From positions 41,326,135 to 41,390,134 of the forward strand of contig JAWZYU010000010.1 in assembly GCA_038380435.1 (NCBI GenBank): DNA of 64,000 nt. Reading direction: 5' to 3'. Under the pieces are notes generated by a model. It was not told the origin of the DNA, did no database searches, and saw only the letters and a program-made list of their open reading frames with translations. A program made the translations under genes and the position numbers. Every line of letters starts with the position of its first letter. Position 1 is the stretch's first letter. Origin of the DNA: Ryuthela nishihirai. Lineage: Eukaryota > Arthropoda > Arachnida > Araneae > Heptathelidae. Shown here piece by piece: positions 30,792 through 63,139 of the stretch.

Positions 30792-32795
30792 AGTAGTGTC
30801 CTGCCAACTTGGGGCATCCCCACTAGTGCTTTCCCCATATGACGTCACCATCCACGCCCACTTCCGGCCACGCACCCAGATTAATATTCGTAATTAATAA
30901 TTCATAATTCATAATTAACAATTAATTAAAAATTAATTAATCCCCTTATTAAAACCCCCTTTATTAAAAACCCTTCCTCCCCCCTCTTTTAACCCGTGGC
31001 GCCATCTGGTGACTATGAGGAATACTTAGAAAAACCCATATTTTAGCTCTAATTTCCCGATTTTGACTCCCCCTTATTAAAACCCCTTCCTTCCCCTCCC
31101 CCTTTTAACCCCTGGCGCCATCTGGTGACTATGAGGAGTACTATTCTTAGAAAAACCCTATTTTAGTCGTAATTATTCCCAGACTACATCCTCATTAAAA
31201 ACCCCTTATCAAAAGTTCCACCCCTTTATCAAAATTCCCTCCCCTTTATTAAACACACCCTTTATTAAAATTCCCTCCCATTATCAAAAGTCCCCTTTAT
31301 TAAACTTCACAAACTCCCACGGTATCCACGTTCGTTTTCCAAGCCCAGCTAAACTTTGGGATGGCAACGATCGGTTGATGCAAGCCTCAGAATAATTGCA
31401 AAATTTGGATGGCAACCTCGCGCAGAAAGGGATGATGCAAGTCTCTAAATAATTGCAAAAGTTGCTCCTCACATAAAATCAACTCCCAAAGTTGTATATT
31501 CTATGTATTTATTCCTTATTAATTAAACACTTATCAAAACTGTCTCCTATCCTCATTAAAAATTTAATCTGTGGTGTCCAATGCGCATTTTAGTACATTT
31601 CCTGTATTTAAAAAACTCATCACAAACTCCCTTGGTTTCTATCCTTTTACAAGTCCACTAAACTCTTTTTGAATGGTGACACTCAGAATGCCTAATAAAA
31701 TAAATACCCCCTCAAGCAGCTGCTTGCCACAGAGGTCTGACATGAGCTTGTCAGTTTATATGCCATAGTAGAAGGTCTGAGAGGATGGCAGGACCTTAGC
31801 AGAAAAACGACACATACATCCATGCCTTACCTGGGGCTCGAACCCATGTCCCTTAGATCAGTAGCCAAGCGCGCTAACCACTCGGCCATGGGACGGCTGA
31901 ATGCCTAATGCAAGTCTCTAAATAATTGCAAAACTTTCGGTAGCAGTCATTCACATAAAATCAACTCCCAAAGTTGTATATTCCCTGTATTACCAATTTT
32001 TATTCCTTAGTAATTAAACACCTATCAGAAACACCGCCCCTCATCATTCAAAACCCCTGGCCGACCCTTCACGTGGTAAATCAGTTTTCTCTAGGCACAT
32101 TTAATCGGTGTCATCCAACGTCCTGTATTTAAAAAAAAAAATTCCTTCCCGACACAGTGATTTGAACCCGCTACCTTGGTGTCCACGTTTCATCCGAAAT
32201 TTGCCAAGTCCAGCTAAACTTTGGGTCGCAACCCCTCGCTGAATGGTTGATGCAATCCTTAAACAAGGTCCCCGTATTTTGCGAGTTCGACCTTCACTAG
32301 AATAAGGACTCTACCGCAGTTACTGTCCCGCAGAAAATGAAAAAATGCTATTGAGTGAAAAATTAATGATTACTCCCACAGCTGATTTTTCTTCGAGTAG
32401 CGTTACTTCCAATGCATCATGTACTGAGGATACACCGGTAATAAGTATTTTTAAACCATGTCGCGTAATGGATATACTTACGGAGAGTAATGAATTGAGA
32501 CAAACGTAAAACCACTTTCCAAGACTTCCTGACGCGGAAGCACAGATACATGATGGCATCACCCCATTGGAGACTAATACACTCAACTCTTGAAGGTTTA
32601 GGACGCATAATTTCAAAAGTCTACATGGGGTACATTGAAACGCTGACCTATCATAAAGGGTAGAATTGGGAATGGGGAGAACCGTCTCTGGACTTGTAAA
32701 AATTTCGGGTTCTAAAGTAGCGGTCAAGGCTGCGAGTGGGTTTTCATGTTGTAAGACCCGACATGAAAGCAGCGCAGATCCAAGAGTCATCTGTC
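30792..32795. mobile_element. Decayed Polinton-type element with left-arm and right-arm halves
   Basis: It begins AGTAGTGTCCTGCCA, close to the terminus of the giant palindrome (AGTAGTATCATGCCA at 48761), and shares CAGTGCTTTCCCC-like and TGACGTCACC words at about 30828-30850. The first half to about 32370 follows the order of the left arm: GGCGCCATCTGGTG and TTATTAAAAACC blocks, then the 32315-32370 block matching 50705-50760. From 32396 the sequence matches the right arm instead (32396-32460 to 59405-59485; 32722-32795 to 60221-60283). It has no intact gene. The right terminus is missing, replaced by the minisatellite. Confidence 0.6.
31697..31898 (-). mobile_element. tRNA-derived SINE, family B, 11-bp target duplication
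   Basis: A full family B copy inverted relative to 17356-17563, with CTCAAGCAGCTGCTTGCCAC at the left and the tRNA-like head (GCTAACCACTCGGCCATGGG on the plus strand) at the right. GAATGCCTAAT at 31686-31696 and 31899-31909 is the target duplication. It inserted into the decayed Polinton-type sequence and so is younger than it. Confidence 0.9.
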
Positions 32796-48168: not shown

Positions 48169-48502
48169 CAGGCGTGTCCAACCTTTTGACTTCCCTGGGC
48201 CACATTGAGTAAAGATTAATTGTTTTGGACCGCACATAAAATATATAATACAGTTAATGTATATGAATAATAAAACGTGCACATGGTAATGCACATAATC
48301 TGAAAATCTCAATAATAAAACTTCATTTATTTTAAGTTTTTTATTATAAAATTAGAAAAAGGGCAACATAAAACTAGTGGGATATCAAAAACTCGCTGAA
48401 AATCACATAATCATGTTGAAAGCTTATGTTGTAAGCACGTAAACTTTACGATTTTGTGGGCCGCATTACTAGCTGTCCAGGGTCACGGGTTGGATACGCA
48501 TG
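48169..48502. mobile_element. hAT-type MITE, 334 bp, 8-bp target duplication
   Basis: Terminal inverted repeats CAGGCGTGTCCAACC (48169-48183) and, on the minus strand, CATGCGTATCCAACC (48502-48488) flank a non-coding AT-rich body with GGGCCACATTG and GGGCCGCATT near the two ends. The 8-bp duplication GTCTAGCA (48161-48168 and 48503-48510) is diagnostic of the hAT superfamily. Its excision would restore the capsid frame exactly. It has no transposase. Confidence 0.92.
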
Positions 48503-48754
48503 GTCTAGCACAACCTCTAAGACTAGGGGGAAAATGGAAAGTGGGGTTAGCAGAAGTTCACTTACCTGTGAGCTGGTACAATGTTGATGGCTCTAATGAC
48601 ACGTATCAATATTATGCTCCAGCTCCCTTTGAAGAATACTGGAAAATCAAGCTTAAACCAGGCAAAATAACTCGAATGGAACTGTTCTTCGAAACACAAA
48701 CTGTTTGGTTTCACCTCTCTGCTCAGCTCCCCAAAGAAATATTGGTGTCATATA

Positions 48755-48760
48755 ACGGTG
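48755..48760 (+). repeat. Left 6-bp target duplication of the palindromic element (ACGGTG)
   Basis: ACGGTG here and at 62416-62421 directly flanks the AGTAGTATC / GATACTACT termini. A 6-bp duplication is the Polinton/Maverick signature. The capsid-gene frame runs up to it on this side and leaves it on the other. Confidence 0.92.
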
Positions 48761-48811
48761 AGTAGTATCATGCCACCCGAGCGTTCCCCCTTTGCACAGT
48801 GCTTTCCCCCC

Positions 48812-48905
48812 TATGACGTCACCGACCACGCCCCCTATGACGTCGCAGACCACGCCCCCTATGACGTCACCGACCACGCCCTCTATGACGCAGCATGACG
48901 TAATC
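48812..48905. repeat. 24-bp terminal repeats with CRE-like TGACGTCA sites (left end)
   Basis: Three units of TATGACGTCACCGACCACGC plus CCCC-type tails (48812-48883) and a partial unit. Units 1 and 3 hold TGACGTCA, the consensus of CREB/ATF-type factors; unit 2 has TGACGTCG. The right end has only two units (62317-62364). The decayed element at 30.8 kb keeps one TGACGTCACC (30840-30849). Confidence 0.85.
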
Positions 48906-50704
48906 ATTACGTAACCGACCTTTATTAATAATTCCTCCCCCTTTCACCCCCCTTTCCCCTCAGTGGCGCCATCTGTTGACAGTGAGAAGTACTATTTTCC
49001 CAAAAAAAACCTATTTTTATTCTAATTCTTCGATTTTTGATTTCCCCCTTTATAAAAAAAATTCCTCCCCCTTATGAAAAACCCCTGGCGCCATCTGGTG
49101 CCTGTGAGGAACACTAATTCTCCAAAAACCCTTATTTTAATTCTTTGATTTCCCCCTCCTATTAAAAATTACTCCCCCCTTTTAAAAATTTCTTCCCCCT
49201 TATGAAAAAACCCTGATGCCTTCTGTTGACAATGAAGAGTACTATTTTCGGAAAAACCTCCTTATTTTAACTCTAATTCCCGATTTTTCTTTATTTTGTC
49301 CCAATGGTTGACCTATATTTTAAGCCCTCCCCCTTATGAAAAACCCTCTGGTTGACCATTTTAAGGCCCCCCACTCCTTCACTCGGCTGATGCAAGTCTC
49401 AGAATAATTGCATGGAACGATTGACTGGTCTTAGAATAATTGTACAGAAAAGGATGATACAAAATTCCTTAGTAATTAAACACTCATCAAAATTCCCTTA
49501 CCTCTATTAAAAATCATCCTACAGTTGAAACTCATTTTACTCTTACTGCTTCCATAGAAAATACCATAGGGTGAAATTAATAATGGTTTAAATTATTCGT
49601 AGGGATGGCATGTTAAATCTGCTTTTAGAACACACGTCTGCAGTGGAAAAATTTTCAAACTCCGTTAATCAACTCCCTAGTAATTAAACACTCGTCAAAA
49701 TATTCCTCACCTTTATTAAAATCACTCCAAGGTCGAAATAAAAATCAGTTTTTCTGTAGATGTGTTTCACCGGAAAAAAAAAAATCGTCCCTCGCTCTGT
49801 GGATTCCGTCCGACTGTCTTGAGTTCCCAGACTATACCGTGTACTTGCTGTGGCTTAGATGCGGGTCAGATTTTTCAGATATTATAGCATTCTTTATAAC
49901 TAGCTTTTTCTATGTATTTCTTACATCAAAGCCAACACTAGCACTGAACTCTTTTGAATGCAGATCTCAAATTGTAAATCAACTCACAGAGTTGTATTTA
50001 TTCCTTAGTAATTAAAACCCTTTGCTATTCATTTAGCCAGGACGACTAAACGATTCCTTTATAATTAAAATTCCCTGCTATTAAACTCCCTAGTAATTAA
50101 ACACTCATCAAAATTCCCTTACCTTTATTAAAAAAAACAGTTTTCTGTAGAGGCGTTTTATCGAAAAAAAAAAAAAACTTCTCCTCGGCAACGAGAGTCG
50201 AACGCGCTACCCAAGCTTCACTCTGTGAACTCCTAACAAGAACCAACCTGCAATGGAAAAGGCATTCCTGAAGTCGTACGTGGAGTCATGCCCACACGTG
50301 TCCGTTTACCGGTCAGGTAGCAACGAAACATCTCCTGACACAATCGCCCTGGGAGGTTGGGTGTCCAGCGCTCAGTGTGGTGACTCATACGATGTTGTTC
50401 TCTGAGGGTAGGTGACGTCACAACAAGGGGAAAGTAACGTGGAGTGACCAGCGAGTGACACGTATCAGAAGACTGAGCACTGGGGATGTTTAACCTTCAG
50501 TATAATTTTACACAGTGTGTTAGGATTAACAACTCTTATAGCATAGTTATTGCGGGTAGGCTCCCTCTCCCACTTTTAAAATTTAGATCTTACACCGACA
50601 GTCTTTTCATATACGTATTTTTATAACCATTTTAAAACCAACACTTATTTCTTTTATCCCTAGCGATTACTGGTTGTTGCATTTTTTACTAGAAGAAACC
50701 CTAC

Positions 50705-51740
50705 CCCTGCAGTAACAGCCCCCGTAGAAAATAAAAAATGCTATCGGGCGAAAAATTAATAAAATCTGATTTTATTCGTCGTGATGAAAAATATTGATGG
50801 GGTAATAGGTTCGACTTAAAAGACTTCGTGTTCGGATCCTCACCACGGACAACCTCTCGCTGATGGATGGTTAAACCCTACGAAATTATTCCAAACGGGG
50901 AATCACAAGGTTTTTATTGACGAATGAATCTTGGACCTGTACTGCTTCCGTACATCGTGAAAACCCACTCACAGCCTTGATCCGTGTTCCCAATTTCCTT
51001 TACTAAGTCACTTCAAAAAAAAACATTGTGATTGCAAAAGTATGACTAACTGTTTTATTACGCCACGTTTTAAAAATACTTATTACTGTTGTAATCCGCG
51101 GTACGGGAGAGTAACACTGTTCGAAGAAAAAAATATTTTTTTTTGTACGAGGTAGAAAGTTAAAAGTACGTCGCGTGAAAAAACTAGTTCCATCACGAAT
51201 GCACATTAATGGAGTAGGGAGGTCGTAGTTTAATACTTCAGCTATAAAAAAATAATACAATGTCTCACGCACCCCTCTCAACTTGTCTACGCTAATCCGC
51301 TATATGCTCCGCCTAGTGCTCCCACCCTCGTTTCGACACTGCAGGCTGGTGACGTACAAAGGTCATGCGGGCTGCAGTGGAATGCATGGCTCCTGCTGAA
51401 TGCTACGCTATCAGAAATCCATGTGGTCGCCACGTTCTCCAAGCGCTCAGAATATTACTATACGTATAACTGATGTAAAGTCCGTTTTAATCAATACTTA
51501 TTTCTTTCAACTCTGCGACTATTGGCTGGCACATTTTTACTAGAAGAAGGGTTACCTTACAGTAGCAGCTCCGCAGAAAATAAAAAATCTGATTTTATTC
51601 CTCGTGAAGAAAAATATTGAAGGTAATAGGGTCGACCTAAAAGATCCTTGTTCGGATCCTCACTCCGGATGGCTTTTAACAAAAGTCCTACGAAATTAAA
51701 AAACTCCCCCGTTATGCAGCAGTGTTTAAAAATACTTATT
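50705..51740. repeat. Diverged internal duplication inside the left arm (modules B and A)
   Basis: 50705-50895 and about 51541-51700 share, in order, GTAACAGC-like / GTAGCAGC, AGAAAATAAAAAAT, TCTGATTTTATTC, AAAAATATTGA.GG..GTAATAGG, GTTCGGATCCTCAC and CCTACGAAATTA. 51061-51085 and 51724-51745 share TTTAAAAATACTTATTA. The two modules, mirrored at 59440-60480 in the right arm, come from an old tandem duplication of roughly 0.7-0.9 kb. Confidence 0.7.
51003..51281 (-). CDS. Hypothetical 92-residue ORF (left arm)
   Basis: Not recognised. The frame is identical to its mirror at 59919-60197. It is rich in F, T and R (TRRTFNFLPRTKKNIFFF, VISIFKTWRNK), with no signal peptide that I can define. Its middle (ITTVISIFKTW) resembles AIISIFKHC in the second module, so it is at least partly a product of the arm's internal duplication. 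The presence of two identical copies only reflects the palindrome and is not independent evidence of coding. It may be a non-coding frame. Confidence 0.25.
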   Translation of the reverse strand: MRGVRETLYYFFIAEVLNYDLPTPLMCIRDGTSFFTRRTFNFLPRTKKNIFFFEQCYSPVPRITTVISIFKTWRNKTVSHTFAITMFFFEVT

Positions 51741-52128
51741 ATAGCTGTATCCCTAGTACATGATGCAAACTCTTTCCGAGGAAGTAACGCTATTCGATGC
51801 ACCCCCCAGTTACATGCTTTTACAGGGTAAAGCCTGTGGCAGAATGTTAAAAGTAGAATTCATACGTTCCGTAAAACTTAAGTTCCAACATGCGTTAAAG
51901 GAGTATGGTTCGACTCACTTTGAGAGGAGCAGTCGCTCGGACCAAAAGCCTGATGGGTCTCCTGCCGAATTCTACACTTTATCAGAACACCGTGTCGGGT
52001 GCCTTCTAGAAAAGGGAACAATTTTTAATATTATAAGAAATATGTGGTGTATAATTCCATGGAAAAAATACGAAACCTTTAGTATTAACATCCTCACTTC
52101 AAATTTTCATGCGACATTCTGGGGTTAA
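51649..52128 (+). pseudogene. Hypothetical ORF, frameshifted in the left arm
   Basis: The counterpart of the 159-residue frame at 59552-59073. One extra base near 51786 (GAAGTAACGC here, GTACTTC inverted in the right arm) divides it into frames ending at 51830 and starting at 51760. The family is unknown; the second half (LKFQHALKEYGSTHFERSSR) is basic. Which arm has the original frame cannot be decided from this window. Confidence 0.3.
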
Positions 52129-53149
52129 GTTTCAACTTTTATTTTTTCCAACCGTAATAAAGCGCTGTTTCTGTGGAGCATTGGTGACTTCGACGCCAAG
52201 GACGACCCGCACTAAACGATACGACCGTGCACTAGAAAACCGTGAACGGACTTGTGTGAAACGTAATGTACAAAGCTTGACAACAGTAATATAGACTGGG
52301 ATCCTCGCTCACTATACTATCATAAGCCTCGAGAAATTATCAAATATGAATAGACCTCTGTAAAGTTCCGATCCCACAATCTTCTGAGTTCATTCCCCGG
52401 TCGATGCTGTCAGGATCACAAGGGATGTTTTACACATTCAACGACTTTTTCTGACATTCGCTAATCAAAGTGTCTATCTACACATCAGACTTGTCATTAC
52501 ATCGACAAACTACCTGTCCATAGGCTGAGTAAGCATTTAGAATGAAAAATTGAGTCAGCTTCACGACACAGATTCGTAAAACGCTCATTAATTATTTTGT
52601 GAGAGAAAGCATGCATAAAGTTCAAACACTAATACATCTTCCCTTTCTAATAAACCATACGATCAAAGTAGATAAATTGCAAGCATCATCGGATCTGATT
52701 CCGTATATCTGCTTACGACGAAAATCTCACAATAGCTTATTCAGTACTTTAACCCCCTGATACAGTATGTGACTAGGTCGTTTAACTAAATTACGTGCAT
52801 AAACGAAAATGTAAAGGGATATCTGTAAATTCGCACAACGGGATAGGTGAATATTTTCACAATTCTTTTGAAGGCAGAATAACTGTGACGAGAGAGAAAG
52901 TATAAAAATGCAGTGGGATGGCTGTAAAAACAACAGATTACAGCGCAAATACTGTAAGATAGAAAAAACGACTATTAACAAGTGTCATATAAGGAGCGAC
53001 CGATAAAAGTCACACCGTAGCGGAAGGAGTAATACAGGAAAAATCATAAAATATTAACCCCCCCTCCCCCACGCTGGTAAATCACGGTCCATTGCGTACA
53101 CATGGATGAATATCACAAAAATACTTTGCATATAGTAAAGAACCACCGA

Positions 53150-53275
53150 AGTTTGGAAATTTAAAATCTGAAAACTCACTTTTTATAGTATTTCCGTGAA
53201 AAGTCACCCCCCAGAAACGAGATCTAGCTCTGTCGCCAGTTATTCCAGCGTACTATCTCTTTTCAGCACGTTTGA
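53150..53275 (+). repeat. Repeat R1 copy inside the left arm
   Basis: GTTTGGAAATTTAAAATCTG then AAAACTCACTTTTTATAGTA and TTTCCGTGAAAAGTC match the R1 start found at 17 kb, 30 kb and 39 kb. A mirrored copy lies at 57926-58051. R1 thus also resides in the mobile element. Confidence 0.65.
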
Positions 53276-53924
53276 ATAAGTGCATGTGAAGGTGGCTAGC
53301 TGCAGACACAAGCTTTTCGACAAAGATAGGATGTTTCACTACAATCTAACACGGAGATGTCTGTTAAGTTATTTTTTCCTCCTATTTCTACACTAGTGTC
53401 GAAGTCTTAGAACAAGTGGTTCGGGTTAGCACACGTTTTTGATATTATCTTGTTTGGCAATCTGAAAGAACACTGTCTGTGGAACATTACCCCCCTGCAA
53501 GCTAGTACTAATTACTTTACGATTCTGAGGGACGAAGGTTGAAATCGTTGGCAGATATTTTTCAGAAATATGTAATCAACCATAGTGTTCGGATATTTGA
53601 TCCATAGTAAGACATGAACGATGTTTACCTGCCATCAGCGACCCCTTCTACGGATCGTATGAGAGGTAATTGTTACGCCAATTAGCTACGTGAAGTCGTG
53701 TTTATTTTTAAAAGCAAAGACACACTAATTACCGACTAGCTAGAGAACGATATATTAACCTACTAAAGTTTGATTTTAACGATCAGATAGTGTATATATC
53801 ATCACTTTTTTAGTTCATAATAATATTCCAACTTTTAAAGGAAATATTGTCTCGTTATAAGCGATTACATACAAAGAAATACACACTCTATACTTTAAAT
53901 CTATAGAGACAACGATCACTATCC

Positions 53925-54005
53925 CAGGAACACATCTGTGAAATATCACCACATTTTTGTTTTTAACGTACGGTTGAATCGTTCTACGATGCTAGCTTTG
54001 GTTTC
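53925..54005 (-). pseudogene. Integrase C-terminal catalytic fragment downstream of the left PC4-like gene
   Basis: The minus strand reads KASIVERFNRTLKTK, the block around the catalytic glutamate (E of VERFNRT) of a Polinton/retrovirus-type integrase, and is then cut short by a stop. The same 80-bp segment recurs in the inner arm at 55445-55521 with a few changes. It starts about 200 bp past the stop of the PC4-like gene, on the same strand. Confidence 0.7.
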
Positions 54006-54177
54006 CCATCCCTTTCTTTTACACCCACCCGATATAAAACATTCGACCCAACATAGCTTGCTAGCTGTGCGAGGTCTTGATACAGAGAACAATATTAACA
54101 CTTCTAAGGCTGACCTTAAAATCCCTGTTAACTATACAAAAGAAATCACATTGACAAAAATATCAGAGGCATTCATA

Positions 54178-54183
54178 TTTATT
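54178..54183 (-). promoter_or_regulatory. Polyadenylation signal of the left PC4-like gene
   Basis: AATAAA on the minus strand 22-27 bases after the stop codon at 54206. The mirror signal in the right arm is at 57018-57023. Confidence 0.7.
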
Positions 54184-54205
54184 TACATTAAGGTCACATT
54201 AATAT

Positions 54206-55108
54206 TTAGTTCGTACATACCAGTTCACCGTGCACCTCTTTTAGTACTGTTGCAAAGTTCAATTTAGACATAAACGCGACATTAGCAGGACGATTTAGTT
54301 CGATACATGATTCTTCCACAAAACTTACGGCAATATCAGTTAGATTAGCGTTTCTTACCACTTCGGGGAAATAATCGTAAGCTGATTCAGCGTTTATGGT
54401 GAGGCACGAATGGCGAAGTTGACTCGGATGATCCACTTCACACCCGAAACAGTTCTTACGTAGCAGCGTAAACAGTTCTTTTCGGAGATCTGTTTTCAAA
54501 GTCCGCTTTAAACAGTCCATAAGCTTTACGAAATCACTGCTGTCTTGTTCAAGGGGTCGATCGTTAGATGGTGGGCTTCGAGGAAGATTTGCCGCTAATT
54601 CTACCTTCCGCACTGCATTCCAAAATTTACCGTTTTCAAACTTCAGAGCCATCAAACTGTAGGTGATTGGATCGCATAAATCTGTCAACCGATGCCACTG
54701 TTCGACGCTGAGCCGAACCGATGACGAAAATACAAGTCTTCCGTCACGGGGGATGCTTTTTTTAATGACCACGCCGTGTCCACCTTTGAGCACGACGAGG
54801 CAAACCATAGCGTCCAGTTCATACTCGCCGTATTCGACATCTTCGAAAGCTTCGACGATTGTAGACGCATACGAAACCAGTCCATGCCACTGCTCTTCAG
54901 ACAGCATCACACCGTCCTTTGTAGGATATAGTTTTAACGAGTCATCACTCTGGAACACACGTATGTGCACTTTAGGATATGACCGATATTCACAAACGCT
55001 CGCAAACAAATCCGATCCGAGTTGAAACATATGGCTATCATCATCTCTAACAGCAAGTCGCTTCGCAGGAAGATCACCATTGGTCAGGGAACGTTTAGCA
55101 CAAGCCAT
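54206..55108 (-). CDS. PC4-like DNA-binding protein with zinc-like motif, left-arm copy
   Basis: An intact 300-residue gene without introns, identical to the right-arm copy. Residues about 47-88 (VHIRVFQSDDSLKLYPTKDG then VMLSEEQWHGLV) match the PC4/p15 coactivator fold: beta strands, a G, then LS.EQW..L. Residues about 105-155 repeat the pattern (SSSVRLSVEQWHRL), so there are two PC4-like units. Residues about 217-235 contain CFGCEVDHPSQLRHSC, a CX2CX3HX5HXC array that could bind zinc. The role is unproven; single-stranded DNA binding in replication or transcription is an inference. A similar PC4-like stretch precedes the integrase of the host Polinton. It reads away from the centre, divergent from the integrase remnant. 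Confidence 0.8.
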   Translation of the reverse strand: MACAKRSLTNGDLPAKRLAVRDDDSHMFQLGSDLFASVCEYRSYPKVHIRVFQSDDSLKLYPTKDGVMLSEEQWHGLVSYASTIVEAFEDVEYGEYELDAMVCLVVLKGGHGVVIKKSIPRDGRLVFSSSVRLSVEQWHRLTDLCDPITYSLMALKFENGKFWNAVRKVELAANLPRSPPSNDRPLEQDSSDFVKLMDCLKRTLKTDLRKELFTLLRKNCFGCEVDHPSQLRHSCLTINAESAYDYFPEVVRNANLTDIAVSFVEESCIELNRPANVAFMSKLNFATVLKEVHGELVCTN

Positions 55109-55162
55109 AGCAAGTCGATACTGGAAAAAATAATGCCTTACAGCCCGTCGAAGGGTAATACT

Positions 55163-55168
55163 TATACC
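55163..55168 (-). promoter_or_regulatory. TATA-like box of the left PC4-like gene
   Basis: GGTATAAGT on the minus strand, about 55 bases upstream of the ATG at 55108, in a short shared region between the PC4-like gene and the divergent integrase remnant. Confidence 0.5.
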
Positions 55169-55189
55169 TTAAACCTGTGACGTGTCCCT

Positions 55190-55521
55190 GTAACTCCATC
55201 CCATTGGTCGAGATCTGGTAGATTTCCCATCTCTTAGTAAACATGATGACGTCTACAAATATTTACGAGCCTGTATAGACGTGCTTTCGAAATATGCATG
55301 TGGTGCTCCTTTAAAACGGAAATCGTGGGAGCTTTTGATCACAAAAACCTTTCAGAATATCTCTGAAATTACAAACAGATAAGGGGGGGGGTTGAATTCA
55401 TTAACAGAGTATTTCAAAAGTATCTTAAAAACACACTCATAATGAAACCAAAGCTAGCATCGTAGAACGATTCAACCGTACGTTAAAAACAAAAACGTGG
55501 TGATATTTCACAGGTGTGTTC
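55190..55521 (+). pseudogene. Integrase catalytic core remnant, left arm, running into the axis
   Basis: Plus-strand blocks are DVYKYLRACIDVLSKYACGA then PLKRKSW (first catalytic D region), a stop after ITNR near 55380, EFINRVFQKYLKN (region of the second D, with the D itself lost), and KASIVERFNRTLKTK (catalytic E). These are the three blocks of the DDE core of Polinton-type integrases. The gene is broken by stops and shifts, and it ends about 70 bp before the palindrome axis, where terminal-repeat-like sequence begins (GGCGCCACTGAGGGGGAAAG). An active integrase is therefore not encoded. Confidence 0.75.
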
Positions 55522-55661
55522 CATGGAGGCGCCACTGAGGGGGAAAGGGGGGTGTTTTAATAAGGGGAGTGGCCTGTTACGTATTCATTACGTAATCATT
55601 ACGTAACAGGCCACTCCCCTTATTAAAACACCCCCCTTTCCCCCTCAGTGGCGCCTCCATG
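55522..55661. repeat. Palindrome axis: inverted pair of terminal-repeat fragments
   Basis: Each side of the axis contains GGCGCCACTGAGGGGGAAAG, GGGGGGTG and TTACGT words that correspond, in order, to the subterminal sequence at 62230-62300 (GGCGCCACTGAGGGGAAAGG, GGTTACGCAATGATTACG). ATTACGTAAT at 55587-55596 lies exactly on the axis, with no spacer. The axis thus looks like two element ends joined tail to tail. Confidence 0.8.
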
Positions 55662-55993
55662 GAACACACCTGTGAAATATCACCACGTTTTTGTTTTTAA
55701 CGTACGGTTGAATCGTTCTACGATGCTAGCTTTGGTTTCATTATGAGTGTGTTTTTAAGATACTTTTGAAATACTCTGTTAATGAATTCAACCCCCCCTT
55801 ATCTATTTGTAATTTCAGAGATATTCTGAAAGGTTTTTGTGATCAAAAGCTCCCACGATTTCCGTTTTAAAGGAGCACCACATGCATATTTCGAAAGCAC
55901 GTCTATACAGGCTCGTAAATATTTGTAGACGTCATCATGTTTACTAAGAGATGGGAAATCTACCAGATCTCGACCAATGGGATGGAGTTACAG
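55662..55993 (-). pseudogene. Integrase catalytic core remnant, right arm
   Basis: Mirror of 55190-55521, with the same broken D, D-region and E blocks. Small differences exist (for example six Cs at 55791-55796 here against eight Gs at 55384-55392 on the left), showing the arms have diverged slightly since formation. Confidence 0.75.
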
Positions 55994-56014
55994 GGACACG
56001 TCACAGGTTTAAGG

Positions 56015-56020
56015 TATAAG
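56015..56020 (+). promoter_or_regulatory. TATA-like box of the right PC4-like gene
   Basis: TATAAG in AAGGTATAAGTATT, 73 bases before the ATG. The leader here has an extra copy of a segment with CCAGTATCGACTT (56050 and 56077), making it longer than in the left arm. Confidence 0.5.
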
Positions 56021-56092
56021 TATTACCCTTCGACGGGCATTATTTTTTCCAGTATCGACTTAAGGCATTATTAATTCCAGTATCGACTTGCT

Positions 56093-56995
56093 ATGGCTTG
56101 TGCTAAACGTTCCCTGACCAATGGTGATCTTCCTGCGAAGCGACTTGCTGTTAGAGATGATGATAGCCATATGTTTCAACTCGGATCGGATTTGTTTGCG
56201 AGCGTTTGTGAATATCGGTCATATCCTAAAGTGCACATACGTGTGTTCCAGAGTGATGACTCGTTAAAACTATATCCTACAAAGGACGGTGTGATGCTGT
56301 CTGAAGAGCAGTGGCATGGACTGGTTTCGTATGCGTCTACAATCGTCGAAGCTTTCGAAGATGTCGAATACGGCGAGTATGAACTGGACGCTATGGTTTG
56401 CCTCGTCGTGCTCAAAGGTGGACACGGCGTGGTCATTAAAAAAAGCATCCCCCGTGACGGAAGACTTGTATTTTCGTCATCGGTTCGGCTCAGCGTCGAA
56501 CAGTGGCATCGGTTGACAGATTTATGCGATCCAATCACCTACAGTTTGATGGCTCTGAAGTTTGAAAACGGTAAATTTTGGAATGCAGTGCGGAAGGTAG
56601 AATTAGCGGCAAATCTTCCTCGAAGCCCACCATCTAACGATCGACCCCTTGAACAAGACAGCAGTGATTTCGTAAAGCTTATGGACTGTTTAAAGCGGAC
56701 TTTGAAAACAGATCTCCGAAAAGAACTGTTTACGCTGCTACGTAAGAACTGTTTCGGGTGTGAAGTGGATCATCCGAGTCAACTTCGCCATTCGTGCCTC
56801 ACCATAAACGCTGAATCAGCTTACGATTATTTCCCCGAAGTGGTAAGAAACGCTAATCTAACTGATATTGCCGTAAGTTTTGTGGAAGAATCATGTATCG
56901 AACTAAATCGTCCTGCTAATGTCGCGTTTATGTCTAAATTGAACTTTGCAACAGTACTAAAAGAGGTGCACGGTGAACTGGTATGTACGAACTAA
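56093..56995 (+). CDS. PC4-like DNA-binding protein with zinc-like motif, right-arm copy
   Basis: Predicted protein identical, over all 300 residues, to that at 54206-55108. The start ATG is preceded by TTGCT and followed by GCTTGTGCT; no earlier in-frame ATG lies in the leader after the TATA-like box. The two PC4-like units occupy roughly residues 45-90 and 105-155, and the C/H-rich motif lies near 217-235. A basic N-terminus (AKRSLTNGDLPAKRL) may serve for nuclear entry. Together the two copies are divergently transcribed away from the axis. Preservation of both frames, while the neighbouring integrase is broken, suggests recent formation, gene conversion or selection on this gene; I cannot tell which. 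Confidence 0.8.
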   Translation: MACAKRSLTNGDLPAKRLAVRDDDSHMFQLGSDLFASVCEYRSYPKVHIRVFQSDDSLKLYPTKDGVMLSEEQWHGLVSYASTIVEAFEDVEYGEYELDAMVCLVVLKGGHGVVIKKSIPRDGRLVFSSSVRLSVEQWHRLTDLCDPITYSLMALKFENGKFWNAVRKVELAANLPRSPPSNDRPLEQDSSDFVKLMDCLKRTLKTDLRKELFTLLRKNCFGCEVDHPSQLRHSCLTINAESAYDYFPEVVRNANLTDIAVSFVEESCIELNRPANVAFMSKLNFATVLKEVHGELVCTN

Positions 56996-57017
56996 ATATT
57001 AATGTGACCTTAATGTA

Positions 57018-57023
57018 AATAAA
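57018..57023 (+). promoter_or_regulatory. Polyadenylation signal of the right PC4-like gene
   Basis: AATAAA 23 bases after the TAA stop, typical of a compact virus-like gene. Confidence 0.7.
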
Positions 57024-57195
57024 TATGAATGCCTCTGATATTTTTGTCAATGTGATTTCTTTTGTATAGTTAACGGGGATTTTAAGGTCAGCCTTAGAAG
57101 TGTTAATATTGTTCTCTGTATCAAGACCTCGCACAGCTAGCAAGCTATGTTGGGTCGAATGTTTTATATCGGGTGGGTGTAAAAGAAAGGGATGG

Positions 57196-57276
57196 GAAAC
57201 CAAAGCTAGCATCGTAGAACGATTCAACCGTACGTTAAAAACAAAAATGTGGTGATATTTCACAGATGTGTTCCTG
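57196..57276 (+). pseudogene. Integrase C-terminal catalytic fragment, right arm
   Basis: Mirror of 53925-54005 (KASIVERFNRTLKTK on the plus strand), downstream of the right PC4-like gene. Confidence 0.7.
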
Positions 57277-57925
57277 GGATAGTGATCGTTGTCTCTATAG
57301 ATTTAAAGTATAGAGTGTGTATTTCTTTGTATGTAATCGCTTATAACGAGACAATATTTCCTTTAAAAGTTGGAATATTATTATGAACTAAAAAAGTGAT
57401 GATATATACACTATCTGATCGTTAAAATCAAACTTTAGTAGGTTAATATATCGTTCTCTAGCTAGTCGGTAATTAGTGTGTCTTTGCTTTTAAAAATAAA
57501 CACGACTTCACGTAGCTAATTGGCGTAACAATTACCTCTCATACGATCCGTAGAAGGGGTCGCTGATGGCAGGTAAACATCGTTCATGTCTTACTATGGA
57601 TCAAATATCCGAACACTATGGTTGATTACATATTTCTGAAAAATATCTGCCAACGATTTCAACCTTCGTCCCTCAGAATCGTAAAGTAATTAGTACTAGC
57701 TTGCAGGGGGGTAATGTTCCACAGACAGTGTTCTTTCAGATTGCCAAACAAGATAATATCAAAAACGTGTGCTAACCCGAACCACTTGTTCTAAGACTTC
57801 GACACTAGTGTAGAAATAGGAGGAAAAAATAACTTAACAGACATCTCCGTGTTAGATTGTAGTGAAACATCCTATCTTTGTCGAAAAGCTTGTGTCTGCA
57901 GCTAGCCACCTTCACATGCACTTAT

Positions 57926-58051
57926 TCAAACGTGCTGAAAAGAGATAGTACGCTGGAATAACTGGCGACAGAGCTAGATCTCGTTTCTGGGGGGTGACTT
58001 TTCACGGAAATACTATAAAAAGTGAGTTTTCAGATTTTAAATTTCCAAACT
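57926..58051 (-). repeat. Repeat R1 copy inside the right arm
   Basis: Mirror of 53150-53275: AGTGAGTTTTCAGATTTTAA then ATTTCCAAAC. Confidence 0.65.
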
Positions 58052-58219
58052 TCGGTGGTTCTTTACTATATGCAAAGTATTTTTGTGATATTCATCCATG
58101 TGTACGCAATGGACCGTGATTTACCAGCGTGGGGGAGGGGGGGTTAATATTTTATGATTTTTCCTGTATTACTCCTTCCGCTACGGTGTGACTTTTATCG
58201 GTCGCTCCTTATATGACAC

Positions 58220-58474
58220 TTGTTAATAGTCGTTTTTTCTATCTTACAGTATTTGCGCTGTAATCTGTTGTTTTTACAGCCATCCCACTGCATTTTTATA
58301 CTTTCTCTCTCGTCACAGTTATTCTGCCTTCAAAAGAATTGTGAAAATATTCACCTATCCCGTTGTGCGAATTTACAGATATCCCTTTACATTTTCGTTT
58401 ATGCACGTAATTTAGTTAAACGACCTAGTCACATACTGTATCAGGGGGTTAAAGTACTGAATAAGCTATTGTGA
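58220..58474 (+). CDS. Hypothetical 84-residue hydrophobic ORF, right arm (mirror 52727-52981)
   Basis: Not recognised. The frame starts with a hydrophobic stretch (MLIVVFSILQYLRCNLLFLQ) that could be a membrane segment, followed by an S/L/C-rich tail. Its exact mirror lies at 52981-52727 on the minus strand. With no family match, no clear promoter, and AT-rich DNA that gives hydrophobic frames by chance, coding is doubtful. Confidence 0.2.
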   Translation: MLIVVFSILQYLRCNLLFLQPSHCIFILSLSSQLFCLQKNCENIHLSRCANLQISLYIFVYARNLVKRPSHILYQGVKVLNKLL

Positions 58475-59072
58475 GATTTTCGTCGTAAGCAGATATACGG
58501 AATCAGATCCGATGATGCTTGCAATTTATCTACTTTGATCGTATGGTTTATTAGAAAGGGAAGATGTATTAGTGTTTGAACTTTATGCATGCTTTCTCTC
58601 ACAAAATAATTAATGAGCGTTTTACGAATCTGTGTCGTGAAGCTGACTCAATTTTTCATTCTAAATGCTTACTCAGCCTATGGACAGGTAGTTTGTCGAT
58701 GTAATGACAAGTCTGATGTGTAGATAGACACTTTGATTAGCGAATGTCAGAAAAAGTCGTTGAATGTGTAAAACATCCCTTGTGATCCTGACAGCATCGA
58801 CCGGGGAATGAACTCAGAAGATTGTGGGATCGGAACTTTACAGAGGTCTATTCATATTTGATAATTTCTCGAGGCTTATGATAGTATAGTGAGCGAGGAT
58901 CCCAGTCTATATTACTGTTGTCAAGCTTTGTACATTACGTTTCACACAAGTCCGTTCACGGTTTTCTAGTGCACGGTCGTATCGTTTAGTGCGGGTCGTC
59001 CTTGGCGTCGAAGTCACCAATGCTCCACAGAAACAGCGCTTTATTACGGTTGGAAAAAATAAAAGTTGAAAC

Positions 59073-59552
59073 TTAACCCCAGAATGTCGCATGAAAATTT
59101 GAAGTGAGGATGTTAATACTAAAGGTTTCGTATTTTTTCCATGGAATTATACACCACATATTTCTTATAATATTAAAAATTGTTCCCTTTTCTAGAAGGC
59201 ACCCGACACGGTGTTCTGATAAAGTGTAGAATTCGGCAGGAGACCCATCAGGCTTTTGGTCCGAGCGACTGCTCCTCTCAAAGTGAGTCGAACCATACTC
59301 CTTTAACGCATGTTGGAACTTAAGTTTTACGGAACGTATGAATTCTACTTTTAACATTCTGCCACAGGCTTTACCCTGTAAAAGCATGTAACTGGGGGGT
59401 GCATCGAATAGCGTACTTCCTCGGAAAGAGTTTGCATCATGTACTAGGGATACAGCTATAATAAGTATTTTTAAACACTGCTGCATAACGGGGGAGTTTT
59501 TTAATTTCGTAGGACTTTTGTTAAAAGCCATCCGGAGTGAGGATCCGAACAA
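59073..59552 (-). CDS. Hypothetical 159-residue ORF, right arm
   Basis: The longest unassigned frame in the element. Not recognised. The N-terminal third overlaps the arm's duplicated module (CLKILIIAVSLVHDANSFRG). The remainder (MLKVEFIRSVKLKFQHALKE, then YTLSEHRVGCLLEKG) is mixed charged and hydrophobic without repeats. Its left-arm counterpart is frameshifted by one base, so at most one copy could be functional. Direction is toward the axis, the opposite of the PC4-like gene in the same arm. Confidence 0.3.
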   Translation of the reverse strand: MFGSSLRMAFNKSPTKLKNSPVMQQCLKILIIAVSLVHDANSFRGSTLFDAPPSYMLLQGKACGRMLKVEFIRSVKLKFQHALKEYGSTHFERSSRSDQKPDGSPAEFYTLSEHRVGCLLEKGTIFNIIRNMWCIIPWKKYETFSINILTSNFHATFWG

Positions 59553-60600
59553 GGATCTTTTAGGTCGACCCTATTACCTTCAATATTTTTCTTCACGAGG
59601 AATAAAATCAGATTTTTTATTTTCTGCGGAGCTGCTACTGTAAGGTAACCCTTCTTCTAGTAAAAATGTGCCAGCCAATAGTCGCAGAGTTGAAAGAAAT
59701 AAGTATTGATTAAAACGGACTTTACATCAGTTATACGTATAGTAATATTCTGAGCGCTTGGAGAACGTGGCGACCACATGGATTTCTGATAGCGTAGCAT
59801 TCAGCAGGAGCCATGCATTCCACTGCAGCCCGCATGACCTTTGTACGTCACCAGCCTGCAGTGTCGAAACGAGGGTGGGAGCACTAGGCGGAGCATATAG
59901 CGGATTAGCGTAGACAAGTTGAGAGGGGTGCGTGAGACATTGTATTATTTTTTTATAGCTGAAGTATTAAACTACGACCTCCCTACTCCATTAATGTGCA
60001 TTCGTGATGGAACTAGTTTTTTCACGCGACGTACTTTTAACTTTCTACCTCGTACAAAAAAAAATATTTTTTTCTTCGAACAGTGTTACTCTCCCGTACC
60101 GCGGATTACAACAGTAATAAGTATTTTTAAAACGTGGCGTAATAAAACAGTTAGTCATACTTTTGCAATCACAATGTTTTTTTTTGAAGTGACTTAGTAA
60201 AGGAAATTGGGAACACGGATCAAGGCTGTGAGTGGGTTTTCACGATGTACGGAAGCAGTACAGGTCCAAGATTCATTCGTCAATAAAAACCTTGTGATTC
60301 CCCGTTTGGAATAATTTCGTAGGGTTTAACCATCCATCAGCGAGAGGTTGTCCGTGGTGAGGATCCGAACACGAAGTCTTTTAAGTCGAACCTATTACCC
60401 CATCAATATTTTTCATCACGACGAATAAAATCAGATTTTATTAATTTTTCGCCCGATAGCATTTTTTATTTTCTACGGGGGCTGTTACTGCAGGGGTAGG
60501 GTTTCTTCTAGTAAAAAATGCAACAACCAGTAATCGCTAGGGATAAAAGAAATAAGTGTTGGTTTTAAAATGGTTATAAAAATACGTATATGAAAAGACT
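59400..60600. repeat. Mirrored internal modules A and B, right arm
   Basis: Reverse complement of 50590-51790. Module A (59405-59690) and module B (60095-60500) each have the order AATAAGTATTTTTAAA, TTTCGTAGG, GTGAGGATCCGAAC, AATATTTTTC.TCACGA and TTTATTTTCT. Parts of a third copy are at 32315-32795 in the decayed element. Confidence 0.7.
59919..60197 (+). CDS. Hypothetical 92-residue ORF, right arm
   Basis: Mirror of 51003-51281, identical in sequence. Unknown family. See the module remarks there: the core overlaps repeated non-coding-looking DNA, so I give it low weight as a gene. Confidence 0.25.
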   Translation: MRGVRETLYYFFIAEVLNYDLPTPLMCIRDGTSFFTRRTFNFLPRTKKNIFFFEQCYSPVPRITTVISIFKTWRNKTVSHTFAITMFFFEVT

Positions 60601-60778
60601 GTCGGTGTAAGATCTAAATTTTAAAAGTGGGAGAGGGAGCCTACCCGCAATAACTATGCTATAAGAGTTGTTAATCCTAACACACTGTGTAAAATTATAC
60701 TGAAGGTTAAACATCCCCAGTGCTCAGTCTTCTGATACGTGTCACTCGCTGGTCACTCCACGTTACTTTCCCCTTGTT

Positions 60779-60967
60779 GTGACGTCACCTACCCTCAGAG
60801 AACAACATCGTATGAGTCACCACACTGAGCGCTGGACACCCAACCTCCCAGGGCGATTGTGTCAGGAGATGTTTCGTTGCTACCTGACCGGTAAACGGAC
60901 ACGTGTGGGCATGACTCCACGTACGACTTCAGGAATGCCTTTTCCATTGCAGGTTGGTTCTTGTTAG
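60779..60967 (+). CDS. Hypothetical 62-residue ORF (mirror 50233-50421)
   Basis: Not recognised. Basic and T/R-rich (LTGKRTRVGMTPRTTSG). It is identical in both arms, but the palindrome makes that uninformative. It is followed by a tRNA-like GGTAGCGCGTTCGACTCTCG segment (60991-61010), which is not a complete tRNA. Confidence 0.2.
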   Translation: MTSPTLREQHRMSHHTERWTPNLPGRLCQEMFRCYLTGKRTRVGMTPRTTSGMPFPLQVGSC

Positions 60968-62415
60968 GAGTTCACAGAGTGAAGCTTGGGTAGCGCGTTC
61001 GACTCTCGTTGCCGAGGAGAAGTTTTTTTTTTTTTTCGATAAAACGCCTCTACAGAAAACTGTTTTTTTTAATAAAGGTAAGGGAATTTTGATGAGTGTT
61101 TAATTACTAGGGAGTTTAATAGCAGGGAATTTTAATTATAAAGGAATCGTTTAGTCGTCCTGGCTAAATGAATAGCAAAGGGTTTTAATTACTAAGGAAT
61201 AAATACAACTCTGTGAGTTGATTTACAATTTGAGATCTGCATTCAAAAGAGTTCAGTGCTAGTGTTGGCTTTGATGTAAGAAATACATAGAAAAAGCTAG
61301 TTATAAAGAATGCTATAATATCTGAAAAATCTGACCCGCATCTAAGCCACAGCAAGTACACGGTATAGTCTGGGAACTCAAGACAGTCGGACGGAATCCA
61401 CAGAGCGAGGGACGATTTTTTTTTTTCCGGTGAAACACATCTACAGAAAAACTGATTTTTATTTCGACCTTGGAGTGATTTTAATAAAGGTGAGGAATAT
61501 TTTGACGAGTGTTTAATTACTAGGGAGTTGATTAACGGAGTTTGAAAATTTTTCCACTGCAGACGTGTGTTCTAAAAGCAGATTTAACATGCCATCCCTA
61601 CGAATAATTTAAACCATTATTAATTTCACCCTATGGTATTTTCTATGGAAGCAGTAAGAGTAAAATGAGTTTCAACTGTAGGATGATTTTTAATAGAGGT
61701 AAGGGAATTTTGATGAGTGTTTAATTACTAAGGAATTTTGTATCATCCTTTTCTGTACAATTATTCTAAGACCAGTCAATCGTTCCATGCAATTATTCTG
61801 AGACTTGCATCAGCCGAGTGAAGGAGTGGGGGGCCTTAAAATGGTCAACCAGAGGGTTTTTCATAAGGGGGAGGGCTTAAAATATAGGTCAACCATTGGG
61901 ACAAAATAAAGAAAAATCGGGAATTAGAGTTAAAATAAGGAGGTTTTTCCGAAAATAGTACTCTTCATTGTCAACAGAAGGCATCAGGGTTTTTTCATAA
62001 GGGGGAAGAAATTTTTAAAAGGGGGGAGTAATTTTTAATAGGAGGGGGAAATCAAAGAATTAAAATAAGGGTTTTTGGAGAATTAGTGTTCCTCACAGGC
62101 ACCAGATGGCGCCAGGGGTTTTTCATAAGGGGGAGGAATTTTTTTTATAAAGGGGGAAATCAAAAATCGAAGAATTAGAATAAAAATAGGGTTTTTTTGG
62201 GAAAATAGTACTTCTCACTGTCAACAGATGGCGCCACTGAGGGGAAAGGGGGGTGAAAGGGGGAGGAATTATTAATAAAGGTCGGTTACGCAATGATTAC
62301 GTCATGCTGCGTCATAGGGGGCGTGGTCTGCGACGTCATAGGGGGCGTGGTCGGTGACGTCATAGGGGGGAAAGCACTGTGCAAAGGGGGAACGCTCGGG
62401 TGGCATGATACTACT

Positions 62416-63139
62416 ACGGTGGTTACTGGGTATTCAAAGCAAGTGAGGGATACGGTTTGATGTTCCCTAAAACGTCGGGGAGGGAGAAGTCGTCGGTGAG
62501 GGAGAAGTTGACAAATCCTTCTACCAACGATTTTCTAGCAAACTTTGCAATGCCGCAACATTCGAGATAGATGATGATTGTTATTTCTACGTGATTCCTC
62601 CAGGTCGTTTCCACGAACGAAAGGTGCCACATGGACGATACGAAACTGTTGAATCATTATTCGATGCCATGAACCAAGTCATACCCTACAAGTTGAGAAA
62701 AGCTTTCCGTTTCAAGCAACAGGCCGATCACACGATGCTGATTGATACAGACATGTTACATTTCATTAAATTTCTTCATTCAAACCCAGGATTAGAAGAT
62801 ATGCTAGGAATTACTAAATTAGATTTTCCATTGAATAAAGCGGTTGGTGACCCCATCGATATGAACAGAGGAATATACGGTATTTATTTGTATTCAGATC
62901 TGATTGCACCTCAGTTGTTAGGTGATACTCATGGTGAACTATTGCATGTTGTGAATCCTGCCGTCAGAACCAATAATAAAGAAGCCATCGTTGCAGTGTA
63001 TCAACAACCTGATTACTACCCCCTGGCAAGAAACAGTTTCGAGAGTGTGAGAATCTTCCTTCGTACCGATACAGGAGAACCCCTGCATTTTAAATTTGTT
63101 AAAGTTTTAGTCAAATTATATTTCTGCCATGAGGGTTAA
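62416..63139 (+). pseudogene. Polinton penton-like minor capsid protein, 3-prime part
   Basis: It resumes the gene interrupted at 48760: after the second ACGGTG the reading continues in the frame that ended there (GYWVFKASEGYGLMFP). A one-base shift near 62540-62555 separates this from DDCYFYVIPPGRFHERKVPH and the intact frame to the TAA at 63137. The C-terminus NSFESVRIFLRTDTGEPLHF then KFVKVLVKLYF is the typical end of the Polinton minor capsid (penton) protein family. Known role: single jelly-roll vertex protein of the icosahedral capsid. The whole gene has three lesions (MITE, palindrome, frameshift). Confidence 0.82.

What the first reader, a model, noticed from the sequence alone, without database searches (positions are those of the whole stretch)
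48761..62415. A 13.7-kb transposed element that is one giant palindrome
The whole insertion consists of two inverted 6.8-kb arms with no unique centre, bounded by Polinton-like termini (AGTAGTATC...) and an exact 6-bp duplication ACGGTG. Polintons normally have terminal repeats of a few hundred to about a thousand bases around 15-20 kb of unique genes. Here the terminal repeats have in effect become the entire element. I know of no described Polinton class with this form. It encodes two identical divergent PC4-like genes and no working integrase or polymerase, so it would need helper functions in trans.
Basis: partly seen in the sequence, partly recalled or inferred. Interest (0 to 1): 0.95.

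Follow-up and report, generated by a model that had tools for sequence, protein, structure and literature searches.

The report
Fully palindromic satellite transposons of Polintons
The 13.7-kb mirror-image DNA in this window is one copy of a large family of virus-like jumping elements that consist of nothing but two back-to-back halves, and the two halves of each copy are kept nearly identical, apparently by folding into a hairpin.

Summary
Confirmed and extended. Window 48761-62415 is a 13,655-bp palindrome (arms 99.85% identical apart from gaps) with (AGT)2...(ACT)2 ends and an exact 6-bp duplication. Its 57-nt axis occurs 101 times in this 3.1-Gb genome (at most 1 mismatch; reversed-pattern control 0). 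In 8 of 9 complete copies the sister arms are 99.6-99.9% identical and form a clade; the best match to any other copy is 96.9-99.2%. Two positions, -6 and -8 from the axis, differ between arms in 9 of 9 copies; both lie in the 16-nt loop of the predicted axis hairpin. Two further palindrome families have other axes. Five elements of about 17 kb with such ends, read at their midpoints, are not palindromic and look like Polintons (PolB by Pfam in 4). One 7.4-kb monomer holds a single arm plus the terminal repeat that is truncated at the axis. Best explanation: a non-autonomous Polinton snapped back on a hairpin in its terminal repeat, has since been copied as a palindrome by Polinton proteins, and its arms are re-matched when it folds. 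Mobilisation in trans and the timing of homogenisation are inferred. The papers searched describe no such element in title or abstract.

The parts
48761..62415 (.). whole palindromic element, family A copy
48755..48760 (+). target-site duplication ACGGTG, left
62416..62421 (+). target-site duplication ACGGTG, right
48761..55591 (+). left arm
55592..62415 (-). right arm, mirror of the left
48761..48790 (+). left terminus, 30-nt tag AGTAGTATCATGCCACCCGAGCGTTCCCCC
62386..62415 (-). right terminus, same tag
48807..48890 (+). 24-bp subterminal tandem repeat (one unit more than in the right arm)
62310..62369 (-). 24-bp subterminal tandem repeat, right arm
48761..50366 (+). outer 1.6 kb of the arm, 88.5% identical to the right end of a 16.8-kb Polinton (L051)
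54206..55108 (-). PC4-like gene, 300 aa
56093..56995 (+). PC4-like gene, 300 aa, identical protein
55525..55658 (.). two truncated terminal-repeat remnants joined at the axis
55576..55607 (+). 32-nt axis core GTTACGTATTCATTACGTAATCATTACGTAAC
55584..55599 (+). 16-nt predicted hairpin loop; holds the two columns that differ between arms in 9 of 9 copies
30792..31563 (+). diverged terminus (AGTAGTGTC...) of an older related element, probably the Polinton in which the palindrome is nested
48454..48765 (+). left part of the old Polinton gene interrupted by the palindrome (...VSYNG); compare L050:3305-4348
62591..63139 (+). right part of the interrupted gene

Best explanation
The element is a non-autonomous Polinton (Maverick) that became a head-to-head dimer. 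Steps. (1) SHOWN: a 7.4-kb monomer type exists with a left terminal repeat, a PC4-like gene, and an outer part matching the right end of a full Polinton; the layout is that of an internally deleted Polinton. (2) INFERRED from the axis sequence: in a molecule of this type the left end lost its outermost ~110-145 bp and snapped back on the TTACGTAATCATTACGTAA hairpin of its terminal repeat; copying back made a palindrome with the right terminus at both ends. (3) SUPPORTED by shared axis mutations: this happened once for most or all family-A copies, and palindromes begot palindromes. (4) INFERRED: proteins of the ~17-kb Polintons (PolB, integrase) recognise the shared termini and copy and insert the palindrome. 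(5) SHOWN: sister arms within a copy are more alike than arms of different copies. INFERRED mechanism: a displaced single strand folds into a 6.8-kb hairpin; mismatches between arms are repaired or copied over, except in the 16-nt loop, where nothing pairs. This accounts for the survival of the two loop mismatches.
For: 40 places, each matched on both strands (paired by eye); 101 axis matches with at most 1 mismatch, reversed-pattern control 0. 11 copies read: exact TSD in 8 of the 9 with both ends found, 5 of 6 bases in the ninth (C18); 2 of 11 had only one terminus found. Sister arms 99.6-99.9% in 8 of 9 against best other copy 96.9-99.2%; sister arms a clade in 8 of 9, support 0.999-1.0. 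Columns -6 and -8 discordant in 9 of 9 copies, the next most discordant columns in 4 of 9; both lie in the predicted 16-nt loop. In 4 of 5 further copies the sister outer arms are 99.75-100% identical, one of these being only 82% like the window. The axis is colinear with a Polinton terminal repeat, 72 of 85. The outer 1.6 kb matches the right Polinton end; the left end matches over the terminal repeat only. Monomer with exact TSD AACATA. PolB in 4 of 5 midpoints of ~17-kb elements by Pfam; integrase in the left end of one. Identical tags on both ends in 29 of 34 pairs, 4.5% expected.
Against: Copy C10:81.0 has arms only 96.5% identical; its inner half is a clade, its outer half is not. Copy L045 has a symmetrised, partly duplicated axis, and my axis search would miss such copies; at least one of the 101 axes (L049) lies in an element with one arm cut off next to the axis. 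The monomer groups with the C34 palindrome (99.1%) instead of lying outside the palindromes, so it may be a derivative, not the ancestor; its terminal repeat also reads differently at the join. PC4 of the palindrome is only 30% identical over 56 aa to the PC4-like ORF of the Polinton read, so that Polinton is not the direct parent. dN/dS of the PC4 gene is 0.84 on very low divergence, no clear selection. No intermediate molecule was observed.
Confidence: 0.62

Rival explanations
1. Same element and origin, but the arms are homogenised in the chromosome after insertion, by gene conversion between palindrome arms (as in sex-chromosome palindromes, recalled), not in a folded replication intermediate.
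For: Would also give near-identical sister arms and spare a non-pairing loop. One copy (C10:81.0) is homogenised only in its inner part, as a conversion tract would leave it.
Against: C17 and C27 have an arm interrupted by 4.1 and 3.6 kb on one side only, neither spread nor erased; residual arm differences lie along the whole arm in most copies. Neither excludes it.
Confidence: 0.25
2. Each palindrome is born separately from a monomer by snap-back at the same hairpin, so sister arms are identical because they are one strand copied once; there is no concerted evolution.
For: The monomer type exists and is closest to one palindrome, C34; families B and C and the 233-bp mini-palindrome have other axes or keep the other side of the hairpin, so snap-back-like events recur.
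Against: One monomer against 101 axes (the monomer patterns demand exact words and can miss mutated ones). All 9 copies share the asymmetric -8 T, absent from the monomer and from the two Polinton terminal repeats read. An asymmetric axis sub-variant GAAATC recurs in 16 of the 100 listed axes.
Confidence: 0.12
3. Assembly or library artefact: hairpin adapters or mis-assembly made mirror images.
For: Mirror-image reads are a known artefact (recalled).
Against: Different flanks with exact 6-bp duplications in 8 of 9 family-A copies and in 4 of 4 family B/C elements; differences private to one arm; one family-wide axis; elements of ~17 kb with the same kind of ends are not palindromic at the midpoint, 5 of 5.
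Confidence: 0.02

Closest known systems
Polinton / Maverick elements
   Same: 6-bp target duplication, (AGT)2//(ACT)2 end motif (PMC8097293, passages), terminal inverted repeats, and outer 1.6 kb homologous to a PolB- and integrase-bearing Polinton of the same genome
   Different: only a PC4-like gene found, no PolB, integrase or capsid ORF; no unique region; a full-length palindrome
Snapback (self-complementary) defective genomes of adeno-associated virus
   Same: left- or right-moiety self-complementary molecules, symmetric or asymmetric, replicating with helper functions, beside canonical genomes and deletion mutants (PMC8235507, passages)
   Different: those are packaged molecules of a parvovirus; these are inserted, inherited transposons with one shared axis in 101 places, in a protein-primed family
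Palindromic adenovirus recombinants (SYREC DNA) and incomplete particles
   Same: protein-primed linear genome turned into an inverted duplication of one end (recalled, no call)
   Different: laboratory or passage products, not a transposon lineage (recalled)
Foldback (FB) transposons
   Same: long inverted repeats make up most of the element (recalled)
   Different: recalled as tandem-repeat arms with another target duplication length and no Polinton termini

Membership tests
Polinton/Maverick, non-autonomous member | 6-bp target-site duplication | tested here: met
   exact in 8 of 9 family-A copies with both ends found and 10 of 10 further elements with such termini
Polinton/Maverick, non-autonomous member | (AGT)2 ... 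(ACT)2 end motif and terminal inverted repeats | tested here: met
   motif from PMC8097293 passages
Polinton/Maverick, non-autonomous member | terminal sequence homologous to an autonomous Polinton | tested here: met
   arm 1-1606 against Polinton right end 88.5%
Polinton/Maverick, non-autonomous member | moved by Polinton proteins | not testable with these tools
   inferred from shared termini and missing genes
Autonomous Polinton/Maverick | protein-primed PolB, retrovirus-like integrase, capsid genes in the element | tested here: not met
   no ORF over 300 aa; of 8 ORFs sent, only PC4 over a Pfam cut-off
Snapback defective genome | self-complementary genome | tested here: met
Snapback defective genome | one moiety of an identified parent genome | tested here: inconclusive
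   monomer type found but nested among palindromes; full Polinton matches only the outer 1.6 kb
Foldback transposon | arms of short tandem repeats; different TSD length (recalled) | tested here: not met
   only short subterminal arrays and small repeats in the arm; TSD 6 bp

The most novel reading that the evidence does not exclude
A lineage of transposons whose heritable form is a self-complementary strand: the genetic unit is a 6.8-kb arm, the second arm is its built-in repair template, and each round through a hairpin intermediate erases differences between the arms. Such elements exist with three different axes (families A, B, C) as satellites of Polintons in one genome, and for family A 101 axes were found against one linear monomer.
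Probability: 0.5. Interest if true: 0.92.

Novelty: new variant of a known kind. Interest (0 to 1): 0.82.

Why it matters
Polinton replication has been inferred mainly from gene content, as far as I know; no intermediate is known to me. Here many natural copies carry a written record of it: a snap-back site in the terminal repeat, arms matched up to the predicted loop, and matched terminal tags. It makes the question 'does a Polinton strand fold on itself while replicating?' directly testable by comparing orthologous insertions. It also shows how a virus-like transposon can give rise to satellites of a form known from defective viral genomes, but inherited in a germ line and copied many times.

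Tried and rejected
Rejected: (a) one-off palindrome: refuted. (b) The 6.7-kb element L030 as the monomer: terminal repeats 72.7% alike, no arm sequence but one short match, and an ORF like the capsid-side gene, so a deleted Polinton. (c) C34's extra ~550 bp as a fresh insertion in both arms: first read so, but the monomer has it too, while the family-B arm runs across that point without it, so polarity is open; either way both arms agree. (d) Axis sub-variant GAAATC as a clade on the outer arm: not supported. (e) AlphaFold model of the PC4-like protein: mean pLDDT 33, not used. (f) IMG/VR search with the PC4 protein: 2 stretches matched a pattern, none a relative. (g) Selection on PC4: dN/dS 0.84 over 145 pairs, uninformative. 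Not obtained: counts for family B and C axes, copies with the window's exact tag, total number of inner arms.

Rows dropped or limited: one search scored only 40 of 2011 first-look candidates. Searches list 100 places each; their counts are whole (825 and 101). In one search two of 11 copies (C17, C27) were left out because one terminus was not found. Of the 34 pairs I read the midpoints of 15 and five small or 6.7-kb elements whole. In one search columns further than 700 from the axis were printed only if 4 or more copies were discordant.
Full report
What is in the window. Between 48761 and 62415 lies a 13,655-bp inverted duplication with arms 48761-55591 and 55592-62415. SNP-only arm identity is 0.9985. 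An exact ACGGTG flanks it on both sides. The ends read AGTAGTATC and GATACTACT. Of 8 ORFs sent to Pfam only the 300-aa PC4-like one, present in each arm, passes a cut-off (PF02229, E 2e-8); three PDB PC4 sequences match it at E 3e-4 to 2e-3. The element sits in a gene of an older Polinton: the flanks read ...VSYNG and GYWVF..., contiguous in the homologous ORF of another Polinton (L050:3305-4348; read by eye). The old Polinton shows a PC4/integrase fragment at 47096-47770 (rve E 2.5e-4 and PC4 E 0.008, both below the cut-off), probably a diverged terminus at 30792, and, beyond the window in L029, ORFs that I read by eye as protease, ATPase and PolB pieces (no Pfam run).

It is a family. A search with 55000-56000 gave 80 matches, which pair by eye into 40 places, each hit on both strands (40 of 2011 candidates scored). 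The 57-nt axis with at most one mismatch occurs 46 + 55 = 101 times; the control, the pattern read backwards, 0. Four of the 101 lie within 0.4 kb on C28, and at least one (L049) lies in an element with one arm cut off beside the axis, so the number of whole palindromes is somewhat lower. I read ten other copies. With the window, 9 of 11 have both termini; target duplications are exact in 8 (ACGGTG, CTCCTG, GGCCGC, GACATG, AATGTG, ACAGCA, ATGGCC, GACGCT) and agree in 5 of 6 bases in C18. In C17 and C27 I found one terminus only. The same 32-nt axis core, in one orientation or the other, is in all 11, with one base changed in C18.

Sister arms. Over nine complete copies sister arms are 99.63-99.91% identical in eight, while the best match of each copy to any other copy is 96.9-99.2%. 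In a tree the sister arms form a clade in 8 of 9 (support 0.999-1.0); with the inner half alone in 9 of 9, with the outer half in 8 of 9. The exception, C10:81.0 (96.5%), has unlike outer arms, one of which falls next to the window's copy. Two columns differ between the arms in all nine copies, at -6 and -8 from the axis; the next most discordant columns differ in 4 of 9. The DNA fold of the axis gives a perfect stem closed by a 16-nt loop, and both columns lie in that loop. Five more copies, chosen for an axis sub-variant (GAAATC, 16 of the 100 listed), were sampled on the outer arm: in 4 of 5 the sister arms are 99.75-100% identical, though one of them is only 82% like the window there; in the fifth the left stretch is not arm sequence. 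The outer arm does not follow the axis variant in the tree. I read this as outer sequence being replaced now and then, the replacement then appearing in both arms.

Origin of the arm. The axis and about 70 bp on each side are a terminal-repeat sequence: 72 of 85 positions match the right terminal repeat of a 16.8-kb Polinton, 62 of 92 the left one. The outer 1.6 kb of the arm matches the right end of that Polinton at 88.5%; the left end (4.5 kb read) matches only over the terminal repeat. A pattern that joins inner-arm sequence to an intact terminal repeat found one place, control 0 (a looser one found the same single place): C21:37561391-37568799, 7.4 kb, exact duplication AACATA, terminal repeats at both ends, one arm (98.4% over 3.5 kb next to the axis), PC4-like ORF open. 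The palindrome lacks the outermost part (about 110-145 bp) of its left repeat at the axis. Its right tag equals the window's and its left tag differs by one base. PC4 reads inward from the left repeat in the monomer and in the Polinton alike. Against a simple ancestor role, the monomer groups with palindrome C34 (99.1%; other arms 95.6-98.1%) in trees of the whole and the outer arm, and with C34 and C30 on the inner arm, and its repeat reads differently at the join (ATTACATAATCACTCCCC against ATTACGTAACAGGCCACTCCCC).

Helpers and sister families. The terminus pattern AGTAGTATMNTNNCAN7GNNCCCCC has 415 + 410 matches, control 0. Among the first 100 listed, 34 pairs of facing ends are 206 bp to 17.8 kb apart. 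I read 2.4-kb midpoints of 15 pairs. All 5 of 16.8-17.8 kb are non-palindromic there and hold PolB-like ORFs, 4 of 5 with a Pfam hit. Five midpoints of 12.4-15.8 kb elements are palindromes (L038, L039, L040, L045, L047): L045 is family A; L038 and L039 are family B, with another axis inside a related PC4-like gene (42-49% amino-acid identity); L040 and L047 are family C. Sister arms at these midpoints are 98.1-99.7% identical, while L038 and L039 differ by 5.6% and L040 and L047 by about 5.5% over 0.7 kb. Four midpoints of 10-12 kb elements (L037, L042, L048, L049) hold family A or B arm sequence without symmetry about the midpoint, as after a one-sided deletion; one of 8.2 kb (L041) matches neither. 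Ten of 10 further elements tested have exact 6-bp duplications: four of families B and C, six of Polinton length (one of the six, at C1:114212269, was not read at its midpoint). The 4.5-kb left end of one Polinton (L050) has an integrase ORF (rve E 4.6e-15) and two PC4-like ORFs (E 2e-5 and 0.006, both below the Pfam cut-off). Palindromes and Polintons share exact tags: C18 with L043, and L047 with L044.

Mechanism. The evidence that palindromes descend from palindromes is the shared, asymmetric axis with its own mutations, and the scarcity of monomers. If so, the arms must be re-matched again and again. A displaced single strand of such an element would fold into a 6.8-kb duplex; repair or copying inside it would match the arms everywhere but in the loop, which is what is seen. 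Conversion between arms in the chromosome remains possible (0.25). The axes of families B and C also fold into hairpins, so snap-back on a short inverted repeat may be the common founding step; for B, shrinkage of an older palindrome at its tip is an alternative.

Known work. 6-bp duplications and (AGT)2//(ACT)2 ends are Maverick features (PMC8097293, passages). A paper search for Polinton with palindrom- gave 44 papers, 20 listed; giant palindrom-, transposon, Maverick, two of three, 376 papers, 15 listed, none of those listed with the phrase 'giant palindrom-'; Polinton with PC4, 0 papers; two of Polinton, foldback, non-autonomous Polinton, Maverick, snap-back, large palindrome, 148 papers, 15 listed. 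None of the listed papers treats such elements by title or start of abstract. PMC6431247 (passages) and PMC3671162 (word search) do not contain 'palindrom-'; nor does PMC8097293. The library lacks most subscription journals, and Repbase was not available. The nearest parallel in form is the snapback genome of adeno-associated virus (PMC8235507, passages).

Scores. I call it a new variant of a known kind (non-autonomous Polinton), with interest 0.82, since arm homogenisation with a loop signature is not something I know from any transposon.

Noticed in passing
G000, listing (first 100 of 825 termini): The terminal 30 nt are modular: five common 6-mers, about ten common 8-mers and three common 2-mers in many combinations (51 distinct 17-nt tags among 100), and both ends of an element carry the same combination in 29 of 34 pairs (4.5% expected at random). 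Looks like matched, reshuffled end tags; reason unknown.
   Followed up: partly
L034 (C3:41964984-41965216), L032 (C1:143376722-143376927): Mini-palindromes of 233 and 206 bp made only of terminal-repeat-like sequence; L034 has an exact duplication GGCGTA and its axis at a TTACGTAATGATTACGTAA hairpin like that of family A, L032 has CTCTCA/CTCTGA (duplications read by eye).
   Followed up: partly
L031 (C1:40354034-40354356): A 323-bp element whose left and right 200-bp flanks are perfect inverted copies of each other, so it sits at the centre of a larger palindrome instead of in a target duplication. May be real or an assembly fold.
   Followed up: no
G000:C28:8423857-8424265: Four family-A axis sequences within 0.4 kb, three at 122-bp spacing.
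   Followed up: no
L045 (C1:113062359-113076074): Family-A copy whose axis has become symmetric and carries a short duplication next to it, as if the hairpin tip had been nicked and recopied.
   Followed up: no
L070:5522-5944 (-), L017/L018: 141-aa ORF of unknown kind in a ~560-bp stretch present in the monomer and in both arms of C34 only, among the nine aligned copies.
   Followed up: no
family-A arms, outer versus inner half: Mean identity between copies is 0.90-0.93 in the outermost 800 alignment columns but about 0.99 in the inner part, which is mostly non-coding.
   Followed up: partly
L050:1143-1973, 1993-2355: A Polinton of this genome carries PC4-like ORFs beside the integrase (weak Pfam matches); no paper of the library holds both 'Polinton' and 'PC4'.
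   Followed up: partly
window 32801-34284: Large minisatellite with a period of about 28 bp (shifted self-matches about 80% alike), part of it open as a 161-aa ORF.
   Followed up: no
window 145-1155, 19254-20739: Reverse-transcriptase-like ORFs; Pfam RVT_1 E 9e-21 for the first, the others by eye.
   Followed up: no
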